In this document: positions 9,978 to 53,529 of the stretch, one piece after another | Layout of the letters: each line of letters begins with the position of its first letter | Position numbering within the stretch: the first letter of the stretch is position 1 | DNA from: Candidatus Poribacteria bacterium | GTDB taxonomy: Bacteria > Poribacteria > WGA-4E > WGA-3G | DNA: 64,000 nt | Direction: 5' to 3' | Assembly (NCBI GenBank): GCA_022394755.1 | Contig: JAGFCA010000005.1 | Span: 1 to 64,000 of the forward strand | Translations under genes and position numbers: made by a program | The notes under the pieces: generated by a model | Seen by the model: the letters and a program-made list of their open reading frames with translations, nothing else | Database searches by the model: none | What the model was told of the DNA's origin: nothing

Positions 9978-11381
9978 CTAAAAATGAATTGGAGCAAACT
10001 GCCCTTCGGTTGGTTCCGCTCAGCAGAACCAGGCTTCAGTGATTCGGGGCGCGGGTGAATGTCTTCTTTTATTTCTTTTCGGTCGAGATTTACCACTCAG
10101 ATCCATAGATACTTCCCAAATACTATAAAATGTATCCAACGGGTCTACATCTGTTATGTTATCATTTTCTACTAAACTATTAACCGTCTTTTGTAGTTCG
10201 TCCATACGTGCATCAGGATGAACCCAGACATAACTAAACGCTGTTTCATCAAGTGTAAGTGATAACGCTTTCGTCTCCGGACGGTTAAGTAAATAGGATC
10301 CGGGTGGAATTAACAGACGTACAGCAAACTGAACAGGATCAACATGATAGATGAGACCATGCATCTCAACGAATTCGAGGATTTCAAGATACGCATCTAA
10401 ACTTGTCCACGGTGTAAACGGAACCCATGTTGGTCGTAAGGCAATACCTGTTCCTTGAACAATATCTATTGCCTCTTCTACATCCGAACGAGTATGGTGT
10501 TTTTCTAAAATCGTTAACACTCTATCGCTTAATGATTCCACTGCAGAAATAACAAAACGACATCCAAGTTCTGCAAATTCTGGAAAGTGTTTTCTATGTT
10601 TCAGTATATGTTCAACTTTAGTCGTGAAGTCAAAGGTTAGATTAGGATAGGTGTCGTGCATTTCTCGTAGAACACGTAGACCATGCAGTGGACCATTCAG
10701 AAAATCAGGATCTCCAAATGTGATATGTGTAGCACCTTCCACTACCTGTTTATGTATCTCATTTAATACTGTTTCTTGTGGTACAGGAAAGAATTTTCCA
10801 TTATAGACTGGTGGAATTGGACAATGTGTACAGAGATGTTTACACCCATGTGTTGTTTCTGTATAACCGACGTGTCGTACCTCACCGTTATCCTCAAATT
10901 GTGCATACTTCTCTAAGTCGGGTAGTTTACCAATTGGCACATCTACTACGGGGAATTCTCGATCATCATCATTTAAAAGAGACTGTACCAATTGTACAAG
11001 TTGTTCAGAAACATCACCCCTACCTATACAGTAATTGACACCCAGTGAAAGTAGGTAGTCTGCATTCAGTCCTGCATAGAGACCATACATGCAAATTACA
11101 ACATCTGGATTGAGATCACGAATACGGGGGAGTAGATGAACACCAAGCCGTAGTGCAGTATGCATCGGAACAGAAATGCCGATAAACTTTGCCTGTTTAA
11201 CCTTTTCAACATCAAGTTGTTCAACCGCAATATCAATTGTATTCGGTAAGAAACCTGCAGTTCTAAATGAAGCAAGGGGACGCGTCAACCCAATTGGACG
11301 GTGTCCCAGTTCATAGCAGGATATCAGGAGAATAGCACCAGGTGTGATCATACGTGAGATTGTATAAGATTTCTTATCCAT
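9978..11381 (-). CDS. B12-binding radical SAM selenoprotein with Cys-Sec-Ala-Glu-Pro tail
   Basis: Residues about 15-150 form a cobalamin-binding-like Rossmann domain (GAILLISCYELG, AKFIGISVPMHTALRLG, VVICMYGLYAGLNADYLLSLG). A radical SAM domain follows, with CKHLCTHC as the CxxxCxxC cluster and THITFGDPDFLNGP. The open frame reaches WFC and then TGA at 10020-10022. Reading on gives AEPTEGQFAPIHF and a TAG at 9978, so the tail is C-U-A-E-P. I recall a named family, 'CUAEP/CCAEP-tail radical SAM (seleno)protein', defined by exactly this tail, so UGA is almost certainly Sec at residue 454 of 467. A hairpin able to act as SECIS follows directly. The gene starts nine bases after the sulfatase stop, so the two form an operon. 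A later ATG at 11351 is an alternative start. The reaction catalysed is unknown. Confidence 0.85.
9991..10022 (-). promoter_or_regulatory. Candidate bacterial SECIS hairpin at the in-frame UGA
   Basis: In the mRNA, GAGCGGA starting at the second base of the UGA can pair with UUUGCUC about 20 bases later (GAGC/GCUC plus two G-U and one A-U pairs), enclosing a small CCGAAGGG apical region. Size and position fit a bacterial SECIS, which must lie immediately 3' of the UGA. The fold was done by eye and its energy was not computed. Confidence 0.5.
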
Positions 11382-11390
11382 ATCGGTATA

Positions 11391-12839
11391 TCATAGATAA
11401 GAATAGGTTGCATTCGGATCATAATCTGGCAACAACGCTTTATGAGGTTTGCCTGCAATGAGTTCTTCCCCATCCGTAAAACCTTCAGGACGATCCTTTA
11501 AGATTTCAATCAGTCGATTTCGCCAAGGTGTTAATTGTGTATCAGCATCATCTTGTTTGGCTAAATCACGAGTTTCATGCGGATCATTCGCCAAATCAAA
11601 TAGATGCTCTTGCCCCGTCTGAGAATACCAGATATATTTATACTGCTCATCAACCAAATAGTGGTTCCCATGTCTATTTTCATAACAACCAGAATGCTCC
11701 CCGTGTAGATATTCCCGTACACCGTCAGACTCTCCCTTCATAATAGGGAGTAAACTTTTACCAGTACATGTATCTGGAATCTCAATATCTGCAGCATCCA
11801 GTATGGTCGGCATAATATCTTGTAAACCCACAGGACTATGACATATATTTTCCTGTGGATACCCCCATCGTCTTGGAGCTCGCATCAGGAAAGGCACACG
11901 TGCAGACGCTTCATAAGGGAAAGTCTTGCGGAACATGTTATGATCCCCTAACATCTCACCATGATCAGATGTGAAAATGACGAGACAGTCATTTAGATTC
12001 CCCATGTTTTGTAGCAATCGACCAACCTGATCATCAATAAAGTTAATCATCCCATAATAGGCAGCACGAGCACAGTTCATATCATAACTATCAAGACAGA
12101 TTTCCCAAGCATTTGGGTTCAATCCCTTCTCCGCACCTTCAAATTCTGGTGCCCAATCACCAACCACTGGTGTTGGTAGATCACGATTAATATAACGATC
12201 ATAAGAATGTATTGGTGGAGTCAACGGTGGGTGTGGATCTATAAAGGAAATGTTCAGAAAATACGGTACTGACCGATCACGTTTCTGTATGAATTTTAAT
12301 GCACGGTCAACACACCAGAAGGTGTGCATCTGTTCCTCCGGCAAATGGTGCGGACGTCCAACCCATCCATTCGCTGCAACTCCGTGTGCCATCCCAGGAT
12401 CATAATCATCCCTGCGATGGTATTGCTGCAACCATTCAACATAATCATTATTCGCAACTCCGTGTGTAGCATCCGATAATTGGACATGGTCAAAACCGTA
12501 TCGCTTACGCGGTGGACTCAGGTGAAGCTTTCCTATCATTTCTGTCTGATACCCCGCCGCAGACAATTCTCCAGCAAGTGTATGCGGAGGATTCCAGTCT
12601 GCCCCTGTATAGCCTACCATACCGTTGGCAGCAGGTGCTGTACCGGTCATGATACCACGCCGTGCCGGGATACAACTCGGACATTCAGCATATCCTCGGT
12701 GGAAATGAGTTCCGCTTCGACCAATCCAATCTAAGTTGGGTGTCTGTAAACAGTCAGGAGCATTCGGATCAATTCCTAAACTGTCTCCACGTTGTTGGTC
12801 AGTAGTAATTAACACGATATTCGGACGGTTATCAGACAT
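11391..12839 (-). CDS. Sulfatase (formylglycine-dependent, type I)
   Basis: RPNIVLITTDQQRGDSLG opens the alkaline-phosphatase-like sulfatase fold. CPSCIPARRG holds the C-x-P-x-R motif whose Cys becomes formylglycine. GKLHLSP, DPHPPLTPP and FTSDHGEMLGDHNMFRKTFP supply the metal and sulfate ligands. GGAGA precedes the second ATG (12839), so I start at MSDNRPN and not 12 bases upstream. There is no signal peptide, so the enzyme is probably cytoplasmic or exported by other means. It hydrolyses sulfate esters, possibly from sulfated polysaccharide. It is the first gene of an operon with the radical SAM selenoprotein. No formylglycine-generating enzyme is in the window. Confidence 0.92.
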   Translation of the reverse strand: MSDNRPNIVLITTDQQRGDSLGIDPNAPDCLQTPNLDWIGRSGTHFHRGYAECPSCIPARRGIMTGTAPAANGMVGYTGADWNPPHTLAGELSAAGYQTEMIGKLHLSPPRKRYGFDHVQLSDATHGVANNDYVEWLQQYHRRDDYDPGMAHGVAANGWVGRPHHLPEEQMHTFWCVDRALKFIQKRDRSVPYFLNISFIDPHPPLTPPIHSYDRYINRDLPTPVVGDWAPEFEGAEKGLNPNAWEICLDSYDMNCARAAYYGMINFIDDQVGRLLQNMGNLNDCLVIFTSDHGEMLGDHNMFRKTFPYEASARVPFLMRAPRRWGYPQENICHSPVGLQDIMPTILDAADIEIPDTCTGKSLLPIMKGESDGVREYLHGEHSGCYENRHGNHYLVDEQYKYIWYSQTGQEHLFDLANDPHETRDLAKQDDADTQLTPWRNRLIEILKDRPEGFTDGEELIAGKPHKALLPDYDPNATYSYL

Positions 12840-12875
12840 AAAATTCTCCATATTTAGTTGTATTCTAATTTAAAA

Positions 12876-13188: not shown

Positions 13189-14562
13189 TTACTGTGTTAA
13201 TCGTTTCAAGACATTATGTGTCATCGTTTCAACAACAGCATCACCACCTGCTAATCCATGCGACCAATCTGTCGTAGCAGCCGTAAAAACAGTTCCACCT
13301 TTCGTATACACTCCCATCGTTGCAGCACCAGTATATCCTTGTTCCCAGTGTTCATACCATTCACAATCATCTGGATGCCAACGGACTGGTGCAGTGGCAA
13401 GAATCGTGAATCCATCAGGTGTTCCATCTTTATAGGTCGGCACAGGTAATCCATCTTCAAGTGTGAATTCACATCCATCACATTCATACCCAACAATAGT
13501 ATTTTGTCCACCAAACTTCTCATCTCTGGATAAGTCTGTTCCTTCAAACACCCAGTGATCTGGACGATGTGCCGTGTATGCACCATCTCCATCCATAAAC
13601 TGTCCATGACTCAGATGATACCCACCTTGTAGAAAACCTACACCAGTCAGTTCATTTTCTGGACGTTTTACCAAATGGTGACTCCATAATGTACTCAAAG
13701 TGCTATAGTCATCAGTCTTGTAAACTGGATCTAAGTTAAAACTCTGTTTCCAACATACCAGTGCACGACCTTCGTCTTCTGAACGCACCTGCCAACAAAC
13801 TGAATTCCCACTAAAAAAAGCAGCATTACCACCATTAGCAATATAGGCTTCAAGATTATCTCGCATCGGGGCAGACCAGTACTCATCATGGCCAACACTC
13901 AATACAAGCTTGTAATTGTCTAATATCTCAGGATGAAATTCTAAATCGCTATTAGCAGCATAATCCAACGTATACCCATTCTGTTCTGCCCAAACAACAA
14001 AAGGATACTCCCATGTACTGAACATCCCTCCACTGGGTCTATTAAATGAAACTCGATTTCCTTGTAACGTATTTTGTCCGTGATACCCGTATAGGCTGAA
14101 CCCACCCCAATTATTATAGGCATTATAGGTGTTGGTAGAAAGTTGAAACAGAATAGGTGTCTTTGCTCCAGGATTTGCTGCACGAACTATAAAGTGCAAA
14201 GAACTTTCGGCTGATCGATGGTTTCTATAAATGATATCTCCTCCACCATCCGATGCACGAAGTGTCCCAACATAGAAACCACTCTCCCAACTATCAGGCA
14301 CTTCAAGGGTAAAAGTCGGTGTCCATCCACATCCATGTGATGACGCATTGATTGGAATCGGTTGTGCTTCACCGGGAATATCAGATTGTGTATGCACTAC
14401 CTCCCTCGTAGCACCAATCCGTGCAATCTCAATAGAATAGCTTCCAGCACTTGTGGATACATTAAACGCAATTTCCTCACCGGGGGCATAACTTAACTGA
14501 TCAGTATATCCATCAATATATAAAGGTCTAATACGATCTTCTGTTTGTGCTAATGTTGCCAT
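13189..14562 (-). CDS. N,N-dimethylformamidase beta-subunit-like protein
   Basis: An N-terminal beta-sandwich (about 10-130: SYAPGEEIAFNVSTSAGSY, SWESGFYVGTLRASDGG) is followed by TPILFQLSTNTYNAYNNWGG, SFNRPSG, EQNGYTLDYAANSDLE, LVLSVGHDEYWSAPMRDNLE and GGNAAFFSGNSVCWQVRSE. This is the layout of the dimethylformamidase large-subunit C-terminal domain, with a glutamine-amidotransferase-like fold. The domain is common in uncharacterised proteins of marine bacteria, so the substrate need not be DMF. There is no signal peptide. Expression is probably monocistronic or with the gene downstream at 14647-15465, which is transcribed first on this strand. Confidence 0.75.
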   Translation of the reverse strand: MATLAQTEDRIRPLYIDGYTDQLSYAPGEEIAFNVSTSAGSYSIEIARIGATREVVHTQSDIPGEAQPIPINASSHGCGWTPTFTLEVPDSWESGFYVGTLRASDGGGDIIYRNHRSAESSLHFIVRAANPGAKTPILFQLSTNTYNAYNNWGGFSLYGYHGQNTLQGNRVSFNRPSGGMFSTWEYPFVVWAEQNGYTLDYAANSDLEFHPEILDNYKLVLSVGHDEYWSAPMRDNLEAYIANGGNAAFFSGNSVCWQVRSEDEGRALVCWKQSFNLDPVYKTDDYSTLSTLWSHHLVKRPENELTGVGFLQGGYHLSHGQFMDGDGAYTAHRPDHWVFEGTDLSRDEKFGGQNTIVGYECDGCEFTLEDGLPVPTYKDGTPDGFTILATAPVRWHPDDCEWYEHWEQGYTGAATMGVYTKGGTVFTAATTDWSHGLAGGDAVVETMTHNVLKRLTQ

Positions 14563-49482: not shown

Positions 49483-52400
49483 CTAATTGGAATCCTTGTT
49501 ACGTTGTACAATGGCAAAACGAATTTTTTCAATACCTGCTTCTTCTACGATCTCCATTACCTTTACAATTTGCTCATGTAATACTTCTCGTTCTGCTTGG
49601 ATAAGAATCATAGATTTTGACTCTTTAGGAACGGCACGGAGAAGTGTGTGCAATCCATCAAATTGTACAACGGTTTCATCTAATTCCACAACAGTTCCGT
49701 TTAATACAAACGATCCCTTTAAGAGCATTTCACCATTTTTTCCTTTCTCAGAAGGAGTTTTAATCTTGATTATAGGATTTTCCCCGTTTAACCAAATTTT
49801 CATCTGAGCAGGCTTTTCTTGAATTAACTCGCTAATTGCACCAAGGACATACGGATCTGGTGATAGCATAGGTTGTGCTAAAGGGAAGTTCTGTAACACT
49901 ATTCCATTTTGGGCAATAATTACCGTTTGTGCAATGTTACGATTCAAACCGTAACTACCCGGTCCTTCACGACCGTCAGGAGAAACACCGAGAAGTATAT
50001 TTTCTGGTATATGGGGTACAATCTTACTTGCCTGTTGTAATAATGCTTCTGGTGAATCCCCTAAAAACACTACCTGTATCTGAAAATATTGTCCGGTTGC
50101 TTGGGATATTTTTTCTAATATACGAGTGAAAGCAACTAATCCACGCAAACCGAGTGGTGTTTCATCCTGTAAGATCAGAATGTGTGATTTTCCATCTGCC
50201 TTTTCAATGAAATCAATGGTCTTCCCTTCTTCATCACCGTTAATCACAGTAGCCATTAGAGCGGGTAGTGTTTCAGATGGTTGTGGTCCAGAATATATGA
50301 TTTTTTCTCTATTCTTTTTAAATTCATCTGGATCTTTTACATCTACCTTCCGTCTACTTCTTGGATTCTGGTTTTGACGGCTATTCAACAAACGTCGAAC
50401 CGTCATCATTTCCTCTTCGTTAAGCATTCCATCTTTGTCTTTTTCAAATAATCTAAGAAGCAATTCTGGGGAGATAGCAGGATCTTTTACACGTTCCTCT
50501 GTTCGGTCCATCCTTCTTGCTTCAGGATCTTCTTCACGTCTGGCTTTTTCTTCAGGAGAAGGATTTCGTTCTTGGTCGCCTTCTCGTTCCATTCGTCTGT
50601 TTTCAGGATCTCGTTCTTTTCTAAGACGTTCTTCCGACGAGGGATCACGTTTTCTATCTTGTATTCCTTCACGGTTCATCTGTTGTCTATCGCGTTGCAT
50701 ATGTGTACGTTCAGCAGCTTGTTCGTTAAGCCAATTCTCTGCAGTAGATGTATCTACTCCAAGTGTTTGTGCAATTGCCCCAAGAACATGTGAATCAGCA
50801 TAAACAGATGGTTGGGTGATAGCAAAGTTATGCAGAACTTTACCTTCCTTGGCAATAATGATAGTTTGTGATACATTTCGATTCAGACCATAACTACCCG
50901 GACCTTCTCGACCATCTGGAGATATACCAAATAAAAGGTGTTCTGGACCATTTTCTAATAAACCTTTGGCTACCCCACTTACTCTTTGACGTAACTGCTC
51001 AGTGTCATCACCAAGAAATACGACGTTCATATATAATTTCTGTTTTGATTTGTTGGTAATTGTAGAAATCATTCGTGAAGTGTCATATAGTCCACGTAAA
51101 CCAGCACCATCACCATCTTGCAAGAACAGTATAATGGGTTGTTTTCCTGCTGTTGATATGAAATCATAGGTCGTATTTTTGGATTTACCGGCTATACTTG
51201 TAGCATTAAGGGGTGGAAGTATTTCACCAGGTTGTGGTCCGGAGAATATCTGCTTTTCATTAGATTTCTTAAAATCTGCAGGATCAGATAATTCGATTTC
51301 CCGTTCAGATCGGTATTGCCTTCTGTCCATCTTTTGAGGGGAATCTGAGTCAATATTGGGATGTAAACCCTTCAATATAGCATCCAGCTCCTTTTTAACT
51401 GTTTCAAAATCTTTCCTTGTTTGTTCTAATAGTGCTCCTGCATCATTTCTGTTCATCTTTTGAGGGGAATCTGAGTCGATCTTGGGATGTAAACCCTTCA
51501 ATATAGTTTCCAACTCTTTTCTCGTTCTTTCTACGTCCTTTATTACTCTCTCTAATTGCAACCTTGTGTCATTTTTATCCAACTTTTGAGATGAATCCTT
51601 GGTCTGATTGATTATTCTTGCTGCTTTTTCTGGATTGACTCCAAGATCCTCAAGCTTTAATATTGCATCCTCCCTTGAAATATTTCCTTTCATGAGTGCT
51701 TTTTTAATCTCTGACACGTAATATTCAGGAGACTTTCCACCAGCATCCATTTTCATATTTTGCTTAGCCGATTTCTCATTCAGCCATTTTTCCATTTCTG
51801 ATGGTTCAACACCAATGGCTTGTGAAACAGCGCCCAAAACATAGGGATCTGTGTATAACATGGGTTGTGTGAAAGCGAAATTGTGAACTACTTTTCCATC
51901 GTTAGCAATCAAGATTGTCTGTGCGACATTCCGATTCAACCCGTAACTCCCCGGTCCCTCACGACCGTCAGGAGACATACATACCATTATCCTATTATCA
52001 GGCCAATCTTCAATCATGTTCCCTGACCAATCAGGAAGATCACTATCATCATTTACGAGAAACACAACACCTACTTGAAGTGATTGATTGGCGTTTCCAG
52101 TAGTGAGTGTTTGTTGATTCTGGTATTCAGCGATCATAGATAACTGGTTGATAGCCATATCAATCCCTTTTATTCCAACTCCATTGGCATCCTGTATGAA
52201 GAGGATGAGTGGTTGACGGTCTGTAGAAGTAATATCAAATGTCTTACCTTCAATTTCTCCATACATACCAGTAACATTAAACGGAGGTAAACTTTCTCCG
52301 ACTTGTGGTCCAGAGAAGATTCTCTCTTTTTCAGAACTCACAGCAAGTTTTGGATCTTTGACTTCAATTCCTGTCTTGTCTTTGTAAACTTTTTTCTGCT

Positions 52401-53529
52401 TTGTTTTGGCTTCCGTTTTCTCCATTTTCTTGTTTTTTATGGATTCATTTTTTGGCTTTTCTGTTTCTTCAGAAGTTTGACCAAAAAGTGATACCGGAAC
52501 AGTTTTCAAAGGTAACAGTTGTGCCATTGATAATAATGGAAGACAGGTAATCATTAAAGAGGCTGCTAAAATAAGAAAACGAGGTTTCGTATGTAAGTCT
52601 AATCGACGATTCTGTTTCAGGATGGAGTCAATTCGTGATTCTAACCAAGAAGGTTTATTGAGTGCCAATACAAGAGGCAGAGTATTATCGTCGTATCGTA
52701 CCAAATCTAACAAACATTGTGCATACTTTTTTCTTTTTCCAGTTATTTGGATCACCCAATCATCACAGATTTGCTCACGTAAATGTATTAACTGTTTGTT
52801 TAATAGATGATAAATTGGATGGAAGAAGAATACCGCACCAATAATATGTGAAAACAAATTTGTCAACCAATCGAGCCGTTGAACATGTGCTAATTCGTGT
52901 GCTGCAACCAATTCAAACTGATCTAATGTCAATTCTCGCGGAATAAGAATATGCGGAGCTAACCAACCGAATGAAATAGGCGAGGACACATAATCAGAAT
53001 AACAAACAGTGACATGTCGTTTAATGTGGAGCTGTTTTGCTAACCTATTACAAATCAACTGATATGTGCCATCTGTCGGTGTAGTACTCTTCCGAAGCCA
53101 GTGAATTCTATATAAGCCAATTGCAACCTTCATTAACAAAATAAGTGTACCAATTCCCCATATTCCAAGAATTATATGTGTAATTGACCAATTGCTGTAA
53201 AACGGACTTTTCGAGGTCAGATTCTGATTAGATTGTATCTCCGGTTCAATCAACCCACTCATTATTGGATTCGACTCTTGAAGGTAAATACTTGATACCT
53301 GTATTGGTTCTGTGCCAATTAATTCAGATTCGGATTTTACTATAGAGATACCTGGTATAAATTGATTAAATACGAAAAGAATTGGTAAACTGATCAAAAA
53401 CAGCAACCAGAGTAAATGAACTCTATTATTTGACTGATGGAAACGTCTGGTAATAAGCCATGTTAAACCGCCTAATATACCCCATTGCCATGAACAGTTG
53501 AGTAATGTTTGTAGGATTTGATGCGTCAT
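49483..53529 (-). CDS. BlaR1-like M56 metallopeptidase fused to redoxin-like triplets, EF-hand and ExbD/TolR tail
   Basis: Residues 1-330: membrane helices and an M56 domain with zinc motif VAAHELAHVQRLDWL (His-Glu near 211) and LREQICDDWVIQITGKRKKY, then a further helix (ILAASLMITCLPLLSMAQLL). Residues about 404-590, 761-930 and 1077-1230 are three repeats opening FSGPQ(V/P)GExLPP and containing CMSPDGREGPGSYGLNRNVA and QTILIANDGKVVHNFAFTQP. These look like redoxin/thioredoxin folds without catalytic cysteines. A helical direct repeat (ELETILKGLHPKIDSDSPQK) lies around 640-740, and an EF-hand (EKDKDGMLNEEEMM) near 1030. The last 110 residues (MILIQAEREVLHEQIVKVME, IVEEAGIEKIRFAIVQR) match the periplasmic ExbD/TolR domain. 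Its ATG overlaps the BlaI-type repressor stop by four bases. It is probably a signal-transducing sensor protease. Confidence 0.85.
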   Translation of the reverse strand: MTHQILQTLLNCSWQWGILGGLTWLITRRFHQSNNRVHLLWLLFLISLPILFVFNQFIPGISIVKSESELIGTEPIQVSSIYLQESNPIMSGLIEPEIQSNQNLTSKSPFYSNWSITHIILGIWGIGTLILLMKVAIGLYRIHWLRKSTTPTDGTYQLICNRLAKQLHIKRHVTVCYSDYVSSPISFGWLAPHILIPRELTLDQFELVAAHELAHVQRLDWLTNLFSHIIGAVFFFHPIYHLLNKQLIHLREQICDDWVIQITGKRKKYAQCLLDLVRYDDNTLPLVLALNKPSWLESRIDSILKQNRRLDLHTKPRFLILAASLMITCLPLLSMAQLLPLKTVPVSLFGQTSEETEKPKNESIKNKKMEKTEAKTKQKKVYKDKTGIEVKDPKLAVSSEKERIFSGPQVGESLPPFNVTGMYGEIEGKTFDITSTDRQPLILFIQDANGVGIKGIDMAINQLSMIAEYQNQQTLTTGNANQSLQVGVVFLVNDDSDLPDWSGNMIEDWPDNRIMVCMSPDGREGPGSYGLNRNVAQTILIANDGKVVHNFAFTQPMLYTDPYVLGAVSQAIGVEPSEMEKWLNEKSAKQNMKMDAGGKSPEYYVSEIKKALMKGNISREDAILKLEDLGVNPEKAARIINQTKDSSQKLDKNDTRLQLERVIKDVERTRKELETILKGLHPKIDSDSPQKMNRNDAGALLEQTRKDFETVKKELDAILKGLHPNIDSDSPQKMDRRQYRSEREIELSDPADFKKSNEKQIFSGPQPGEILPPLNATSIAGKSKNTTYDFISTAGKQPIILFLQDGDGAGLRGLYDTSRMISTITNKSKQKLYMNVVFLGDDTEQLRQRVSGVAKGLLENGPEHLLFGISPDGREGPGSYGLNRNVSQTIIIAKEGKVLHNFAITQPSVYADSHVLGAIAQTLGVDTSTAENWLNEQAAERTHMQRDRQQMNREGIQDRKRDPSSEERLRKERDPENRRMEREGDQERNPSPEEKARREEDPEARRMDRTEERVKDPAISPELLLRLFEKDKDGMLNEEEMMTVRRLLNSRQNQNPRSRRKVDVKDPDEFKKNREKIIYSGPQPSETLPALMATVINGDEEGKTIDFIEKADGKSHILILQDETPLGLRGLVAFTRILEKISQATGQYFQIQVVFLGDSPEALLQQASKIVPHIPENILLGVSPDGREGPGSYGLNRNIAQTVIIAQNGIVLQNFPLAQPMLSPDPYVLGAISELIQEKPAQMKIWLNGENPIIKIKTPSEKGKNGEMLLKGSFVLNGTVVELDETVVQFDGLHTLLRAVPKESKSMILIQAEREVLHEQIVKVMEIVEEAGIEKIRFAIVQRNKDSN

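What the first reader, a model, noticed from the sequence alone, without database searches (positions are those of the whole stretch)
9978..10060. In-frame UGA decoded as selenocysteine in a B12 radical SAM protein next to a sulfatase
The codons read TGC TGA GCG GAA CCA, i.e. C-U-A-E-P, then 10 more codons to a TAG. This is the tail that names the CUAEP/CCAEP radical SAM (seleno)protein family, and a foldable hairpin starts at the UGA. Standard gene calling ends the protein one residue too early and hides the selenoprotein. The nine-base gap to a sulfatase suggests the pair acts together, which to my knowledge is unexplained.
Basis: partly seen in the sequence, partly recalled or inferred. Interest (0 to 1): 0.75.

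Follow-up and report, generated by a model that had tools for sequence, protein, structure and literature searches.

The report
Selenocysteine-tailed radical SAM enzyme
The apparent stop codon near the end of this sponge-symbiont gene is almost certainly read as selenocysteine, making it a selenium form of a named but uncharacterised radical enzyme family, and genome comparisons tie it to an amino-acid ligase and a DUF169 protein rather than to the sulfatase beside it.

Summary
Window 10020-10022 (-) is an in-frame TGA; read through to a TAG it gives a 467-aa radical SAM protein ending ...TEAWFCUAEPTEGQFAPIHF, scoring 614 bits against NCBIfam NF040546 (CUAEP/CCAEP-tail radical SAM (seleno)protein; cut-off 500). 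The genome (Poribacteria-type) has selA, selB, tRNA-Sec (anticodon UCA) and a SelD that itself carries an in-frame TGA.

All 53 Poribacterial copies read have TGA at this spot; all 61 other genome-contig homologs have Cys. Codons after the TGA evolve as coding sequence. A 4-bp hairpin 19 nt downstream is kept with compensatory changes (45 of 47 tails fully paired; 7.6 expected from synonymous resampling). Thermomicrobium roseum has its own TGA-plus-hairpin copy, truncated in its annotation.

The sulfatase partnership is not supported: it is adjacent in about a quarter of Poribacterial loci and no Cys-type locus, and 12 related genomes keep it without the enzyme. Better partners are an ATP-grasp amino-acid ligase (85 genomes: 49 both, 30 neither; usually adjacent in Cys-type lineages) and a DUF169 protein.

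"B12" is only a fold resemblance. The nearest relative of known chemistry is ArsL (arsinothricin). New member of a known kind; substrate unknown.

The parts
9978..11381 (-). CUAEP-tail radical SAM selenoprotein gene, read through the UGA to TAG (467 aa; annotated frame would stop at 10020)
   Evidence: NF040546 614 bits, cut-off 500; Radical_SAM PF04055
10020..10022 (-). in-frame TGA predicted to encode Sec454
   Evidence: TGA in all 53 Poribacterial copies read, Cys codon in all 61 other genome-contig homologs; TGA also in Thermomicrobium roseum
9992..10004 (-). conserved SECIS-like hairpin: stem 10001-10004 with 9992-9995, loop AGUUU at 9996-10000, loop begins 19 nt after the UGA
9981..10019 (-). 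13 codons after the UGA (AEPTEGQFAPIHF), under protein-level constraint
   Evidence: pairwise differences pos1 0.051, pos2 0.075, pos3 0.481; after the real stop 0.72/0.73/0.70
10821..10844 (-). CX3CX2C [4Fe-4S]/SAM motif (GCKHLCTHC, C180/C184/C187)
   Evidence: invariant in 36 homologs
11391..12851 (-). upstream sulfatase (PRK13759-type arylsulfatase), 9 nt before the radical SAM start; neighbour, not a conserved partner
12642..12674 (-). sulfatase formylglycine motif C60-I-P-A-R-R-G-I-M-T-G
   Evidence: read directly from the translation
13189..14562 (-). DMFA2_C-domain protein; within 6 kb in 30 of 53 Poribacterial loci, local context only

Best explanation
The gene encodes a radical SAM selenoenzyme of the CUAEP/CCAEP-tail family: the UGA is decoded as selenocysteine by the genome's own SelA/SelB/SelC/SelD system with the help of a bacterial-type SECIS hairpin just downstream. 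Shown by sequence comparison: the recoding signal, coding constraint past the UGA, the Sec/Cys exchange across lineages, and the machinery. Strongly inferred from co-occurrence: the enzyme works in one small biosynthetic module with an ATP-grasp L-amino-acid ligase-like enzyme and a DUF169 protein, not with the neighbouring sulfatase. Weakly inferred (about 0.3): the chemistry resembles that of its sister family ArsL, i.e. SAM is cleaved to give a 3-amino-3-carboxypropyl or related radical that builds an unusual amino acid, which the ligase then couples to another amino acid; the C-terminal Cys-Sec pair would reach the active site and act as a soft ligand or redox pair for the heteroatom substrate.
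For: Family score 614 bits over a cut-off of 500. selB, selA, tRNA-Sec, selD over cut-off; tRNA-Sec anticodon tca directly behind selB; SelD itself reads CAGUASK through a TGA. TGA in every full Poribacterial copy (53 of 53 loci); Cys in 61 of 61 others. Codon constraint after the UGA. Hairpin with compensatory changes, absent from Cys homologs. T. roseum has TGA plus a GGACCC-GUC-GGGUCC hairpin in the same register. ATP-grasp within 6 kb in 44 of 61 Cys-type loci; in 85 Poribacteria-phylum genomes ATP-grasp is 49 both / 1 / 5 / 30 neither (p 1e-16) and DUF169 46 / 4 / 1 / 34 (p 4e-18) although the ligase is unlinked there. In the window's genome both DUF169 (C80) and the ligase (C190) lie on other contigs yet are present. 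The ligase carries a LAL_C2 domain. ArsL is the next-best family (304 bits), has a CC near its C-terminus aligning with CU, and two ArsL loci also carry an ATP-grasp gene.
Against: No protein-level proof of Sec. The conserved stem is only 4 bp, and in the window's own sequence a competing fold is slightly more stable. Fisher p values ignore shared ancestry; no species tree was made. Five genomes have the ligase without the enzyme and one the reverse, though four of these six are under 90% complete. DUF169 is absent or only about 33% identical in the other Poribacterial families. The ArsL ligases are only 21-25% identical to the CCAEP ligases, and no arsenic genes were seen among the scanned neighbours of Cys-type loci (only the 25 commonest families were listed).
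Confidence: 0.82

Rival explanations
1. The UGA is an ordinary stop codon: the protein ends at ...WFC and the downstream CUAEP-like codons are chance.
For: Gene callers end the frame there; the hairpin of the window alone is no better than shuffles.
Against: Downstream codons conserved as protein for 10-13 codons and free only at third positions; C[C/U]AEP in 114 of 114 loci; compensatory hairpin; complete Sec machinery.
Confidence: 0.02
2. The radical SAM enzyme and the adjacent sulfatase form a functional pair (for instance, it matures or feeds the sulfatase).
For: 9-nt gap, same strand; a sulfatase of the same cluster sits directly upstream in several relatives of the same genus.
Against: Adjacent in about a quarter of Poribacterial loci and no Cys-type locus; 12 family-f1 genomes keep the sulfatase without the enzyme; no sulfatase-maturase model matched the enzyme; the genome has 27 FGE-sulfatase-domain matches that could mature sulfatases.
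Confidence: 0.05
3. It is a cobalamin-dependent (class B) radical SAM methyltransferase or related enzyme, with the N-terminal Rossmann domain binding B12.
For: AlphaFold model (pLDDT 91.5) matches AprD4, OxsB, TsrM and MgmA best, TM 0.54-0.65; weak hits to B12/radical SAM families such as PhpK and TIGR04013.
Against: No Pfam B12-binding match; the top match AprD4 is, to my knowledge, an enzyme whose similar domain does not bind cobalamin; MiaB also matches.
Confidence: 0.3
4. It is a sulfur- or selenium-inserting enzyme of the MiaB/LipA kind that uses the Cys-Sec tail or a sacrificial cluster repaired by Nfu.
For: Nfu-type Fe-S proteins lie within 6 kb in 43 of 61 Cys-type loci and 9 of 53 Poribacterial loci; MiaB among structural matches; four Chloroflexi loci carry LipB-LipA next door.
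Against: No invariant cysteines other than the CX3CX2C triad and the tail pair; no NifU domain in the window's genome, so Nfu is not required.
Confidence: 0.12

Closest known systems
NCBIfam NF040546, CUAEP/CCAEP-tail radical SAM (seleno)protein
   Same: Full-length match over the equivalog cut-off; tail C-U-A-E-P; radical SAM triad.
   Different: Nothing that excludes membership. The name gives no function; partners and recoding element described here are not in the model name.
ArsL, arsinothricin biosynthesis radical SAM protein (NF040542, RCCLKC tail; PMC8552651)
   Same: Homologous over most of its length (32-37% identity to plasmid ArsL/RCCLKC proteins); tandem CC near the C-terminus; ATP-grasp gene nearby in two loci.
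   Different: 304 bits against a cut-off of 450; tail CUAEP rather than RCCLKC; 60-70 extra residues before the tail; no arsM/arsR neighbour seen.
Other radical SAM selenoproteins: TIGR04167 (GxxU) and TrsS NF045646 (PMC13188914 Table 1)
   Same: Radical SAM proteins with a predicted Sec.
   Different: Different families; neither was matched by this protein at E <= 0.001. NF040546 is not in that review's table of 119 families.
CU-motif selenoproteins SaoL, SaoC, HgcA (PMC13188914 Table 1)
   Same: Adjacent Cys-Sec pair, in systems tied to organometal chemistry.
   Different: Unrelated protein folds; comparison is of motif only.
Class B radical SAM enzymes AprD4, OxsB, TsrM, MgmA
   Same: Rossmann-like N-terminal domain plus radical SAM barrel.
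   Different: About 14-17% identity; cobalamin binding untested.

Membership tests
NF040546 CUAEP/CCAEP-tail radical SAM | score at or above the curated cut-off of 500 bits | tested here: met
   614.4 bits, residues 17-463
NF040546 CUAEP/CCAEP-tail radical SAM | C-terminal C-[U/C]-A-E-P tail | tested here: met
Radical SAM superfamily | CX3CX2C motif and PF04055 domain | tested here: met
   PF04055 46.6 bits; triad invariant
Bacterial selenoprotein (Sec/Cys pair) | UGA aligns with Cys in homologs, with conservation downstream | tested here: met
Bacterial selenoprotein (Sec machinery) | selA, selB, selC, selD in the genome | tested here: met
Bacterial SECIS model (PMC13188914 Fig. 2) | loop 3-9 nt, stem 4-16 bp, G in first two loop positions, 16-37 nt from UGA to loop | tested here: met
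   AGUUU loop, 4 bp, G at loop position 2, 19 nt
Bacterial SECIS model (PMC13188914 Fig. 2) | minimum free energy <= -7.5 kcal/mol | tested here: inconclusive
   window -8.6 for UGA to TAG but by a competing fold, -6.9 with the conserved stem; relatives -12.2 and -15.5
Bacterial selenoprotein | Sec present in the protein | not testable with these tools
   needs mass spectrometry or 75Se labelling
ArsL (NF040542) | score at or above 450 bits; RCCLKC tail | tested here: not met
   304.4 bits; tail is CUAEP
ArsL-like chemistry | 3-amino-3-carboxypropyl transfer from SAM | not testable with these tools
   reported for ArsL as predicted from product in PMC8552651; no assay here
Cobalamin-dependent radical SAM | B12-binding sequence family match | tested here: not met
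   no Pfam B12-binding match at E <= 0.001
Cobalamin-dependent radical SAM | class B fold | tested here: met
   AprD4, OxsB, TsrM as best structural matches, TM 0.57-0.65
Sulfatase-maturating radical SAM (anSME) | match to a maturase model | tested here: not met
   none among 12 NCBIfam families matched

The most novel reading that the evidence does not exclude
The CUAEP enzyme, its ATP-grasp ligase and DUF169 protein form an unreported pathway in sponge-associated Poribacteria that makes a small amino-acid or dipeptide product containing an unusual carbon-heteroatom bond (arsenic, selenium or similar), with a selenocysteine-cysteine tail handling the heteroatom.
Probability: 0.15. Interest if true: 0.8.

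Novelty: new member of a known kind. Interest (0 to 1): 0.42.

Why it matters
Radical SAM enzymes with selenocysteine are few, and none with this tail has a known reaction. The family is named in NCBIfam but does not appear in a 2026 table of 119 prokaryotic selenoprotein families, and its genes are truncated in at least one public annotation (T. roseum). Finding that the enzyme is gained and lost together with one ligase and one DUF169 protein gives experimenters a defined three-gene set to express and a way to find the product, and it corrects a misleading link to sulfatase biology. The paired Sec and Cys versions across phyla also offer a natural comparison of what selenium adds.

Tried and rejected
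Sulfatase as partner: rejected on adjacency and phyletic data. Sulfatase maturase reading: no model match, and FGE-domain genes are abundant. Single-sequence folding as proof of SECIS: not significant for the window, replaced by covariation and synonymous-codon nulls. Nfu as an obligate partner: no NifU domain in the window's genome. First gene calls on high-GC Actinobacterial loci produced antisense artefacts (clusters 10 and 19); redone with codon-position scoring. Rfam over 9-13 kb: no relevant match. tRNA-Sec on the T. roseum plasmid: not found over cut-off; the chromosome was not available. Literature: no paper held mentions CUAEP; the two most relevant papers by Haft and colleagues are not held, so they may already discuss this family. 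PDB sequence searches gave only radical SAM-domain level relatives.

Full report
WHAT IS THERE. On the minus strand the frame starting at 11381 reads 453 codons to a TGA at 10020-10022 and continues for 13 codons (AEPTEGQFAPIHF) to a TAG at 9978-9980. The 467-aa read-through product scores 614 bits against NF040546, CUAEP/CCAEP-tail radical SAM (seleno)protein, cut-off 500; the runner-up is ArsL at 304 bits, below its own cut-off of 450. Pfam sees only Radical_SAM. Nine bases separate the gene from an upstream sulfatase with an intact formylglycine motif.

IS THE UGA RECODED. The genome holding the window (5.19 Mb, 93.8% complete) has selA, selB, tRNA-Sec and selD over cut-off. The tRNA-Sec, anticodon tca, follows selB, and SelD itself reads ...KCAGUASK... 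through a TGA. Named relatives place the genome with Candidatus Poribacteria. In a scan of 85 genomes of the phylum, 49 have the family over cut-off, and every full copy has exactly one in-frame TGA. In 53 Poribacterial loci that were read, the codon is TGA in all; in 61 loci from Actinomycetota, Chloroflexota, Acidobacteriota, Nitrospirota and others it is TGC or TGT in all. Some of the 53 loci repeat genomes already present under another name; 48 distinct 48-nt tails remain.

CONSTRAINT AFTER THE UGA. Among 45 distinct Poribacterial segments, mean pairwise difference per site in the ten codons after the UGA is 0.051, 0.075 and 0.481 at codon positions 1, 2 and 3. Before the UGA it is 0.101, 0.037 and 0.460; after the true stop it is 0.72, 0.73 and 0.70. 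The ribosome evidently translates past the UGA in the lineages that shaped these sequences.

THE HAIRPIN. The conserved element is not the fold that a single-sequence program favours for the window. It is a 4-bp stem with an AGUUN loop starting 19 nt after the UGA. It meets the published geometric limits for bacterial SECIS (PMC13188914), while the energy limit is met only ambiguously in the window. In 36 distinct TGA sequences 98.6% of cells pair, 14 cells carry changes on both sides (shuffled 3.9 +/- 1.5), and no slid version exceeds 65%. Resampling synonymous codons leaves 7.6 +/- 2.4 of 47 tails fully paired, against 45 observed. These counts are of sequences, not independent events. In the Cys-type homologs, which need no SECIS, pairing at the same places is 39-68%. 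Thermomicrobium roseum, from another phylum, has a TGA there, with GGACCC-GUC-GGGUCC in the same register; its annotated protein stops at ...TESWFC. Its chromosome was not searched for Sec genes.

WHO ARE ITS PARTNERS. Neighbour scans over 114 loci give a sulfatase homolog within 6 kb in 14 Poribacterial loci and none of the 61 Cys-type loci. An ATP-grasp ligase occurs in 44 and an Nfu-type Fe-S protein in 43 of the Cys-type loci. A DUF169 protein occurs in 37 Poribacterial and 7 Cys-type loci. Some contigs are short, so these are lower bounds. A Pfam tally of flanking proteins agrees. The ligase has ATP-grasp_4 and LAL_C2 domains.

PHYLETIC TEST. In Poribacteria the ligase is not next to the enzyme, so co-occurrence is an independent test. 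Over 85 genomes: enzyme and ligase 49 both, 1 enzyme only, 5 ligase only, 30 neither (p 1e-16); enzyme and DUF169 46, 4, 1, 34 (p 4e-18); enzyme and sulfatase 44, 6, 21, 14 (p 4e-3). Within the window's own family of 59 genomes: ligase 38/1/5/15, DUF169 39/0/1/19, sulfatase 37/2/12/8. The one DUF169-only genome has that gene at a contig edge, where the enzyme would be cut off. These p values treat genomes as independent, which they are not; the absences do fall within more than one genus. selA is present in most genomes with or without the enzyme. In the window's genome the ligase is on contig 190 and DUF169 on contig 80.

WHAT IT WORKS LIKE. A high-confidence AlphaFold model (pLDDT 91.5) resembles AprD4, OxsB, TsrM and MgmA, then MiaB. 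This is the fold of cobalamin-type radical SAM enzymes, but fold does not show cobalamin use. The tree places two ArsL proteins next to the Poribacterial branch, on a long branch and with an arbitrary root. ArsL makes hydroxyarsinothricin, and transfer of the 3-amino-3-carboxypropyl group of SAM to As(III) is the proposed mechanism (PMC8552651). Two ArsL loci also carry an ATP-grasp gene, only distantly related to the CCAEP ligase. From this I infer, at about 0.3, an ArsL-like reaction making an unusual amino acid that the ligase couples onward, with the Cys-Sec tail as ligand or redox pair. The substrate, the metal or metalloid, and the role of DUF169 are not shown.

VERDICT. The reading as a selenoprotein is right and well supported short of protein data. 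The sulfatase link should be dropped. 'B12' should be written as 'B12-type fold'. Because NCBIfam already names the family as a selenoprotein family, this is a new member of a known kind; the partner set and the recoding element are the useful additions, and I could not check whether two papers not held here report them.

Noticed in passing
L169 5944-7440 (NC_011961.1, Thermomicrobium roseum): The annotated CUAEP/CCAEP protein stops at an in-frame TGA; read-through gives CUAEP and a strong hairpin follows, so the deposited protein is probably truncated.
   Followed up: partly
L032, L034, L037, L038 downstream of the CCAEP gene: Four Chloroflexota loci carry lipB and lipA near the CCAEP enzyme, with NfuA and the ATP-grasp ligase upstream.
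   Followed up: no
L170 430-1662 and L171 477-1700: ATP-grasp genes lie close to RCCLKC-tail (ArsL-type) radical SAM genes on Alicyclobacillus and Priestia plasmids; their role beside arsinothricin-type genes is unclear to me.
   Followed up: partly
L036 9467-10357 and relatives: A protein with no Pfam or NCBIfam match lies directly downstream of the CCAEP gene in 30 of 61 Cys-type loci.
   Followed up: partly
L172 6382-7332: A 316-aa protein with no Pfam match sits just upstream of the ATP-grasp ligase in the window's genome and in two relatives (L178, L179).
   Followed up: partly
window's genome, 27 places: 27 matches to the FGE-sulfatase domain, including a run on contig 7, suggest large expansion of this domain.
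   Followed up: no
window 49483-53529: A 1348-aa protein with an N-terminal BlaR1-type M56 peptidase domain, preceded by a 136-aa ORF; not studied.
   Followed up: no
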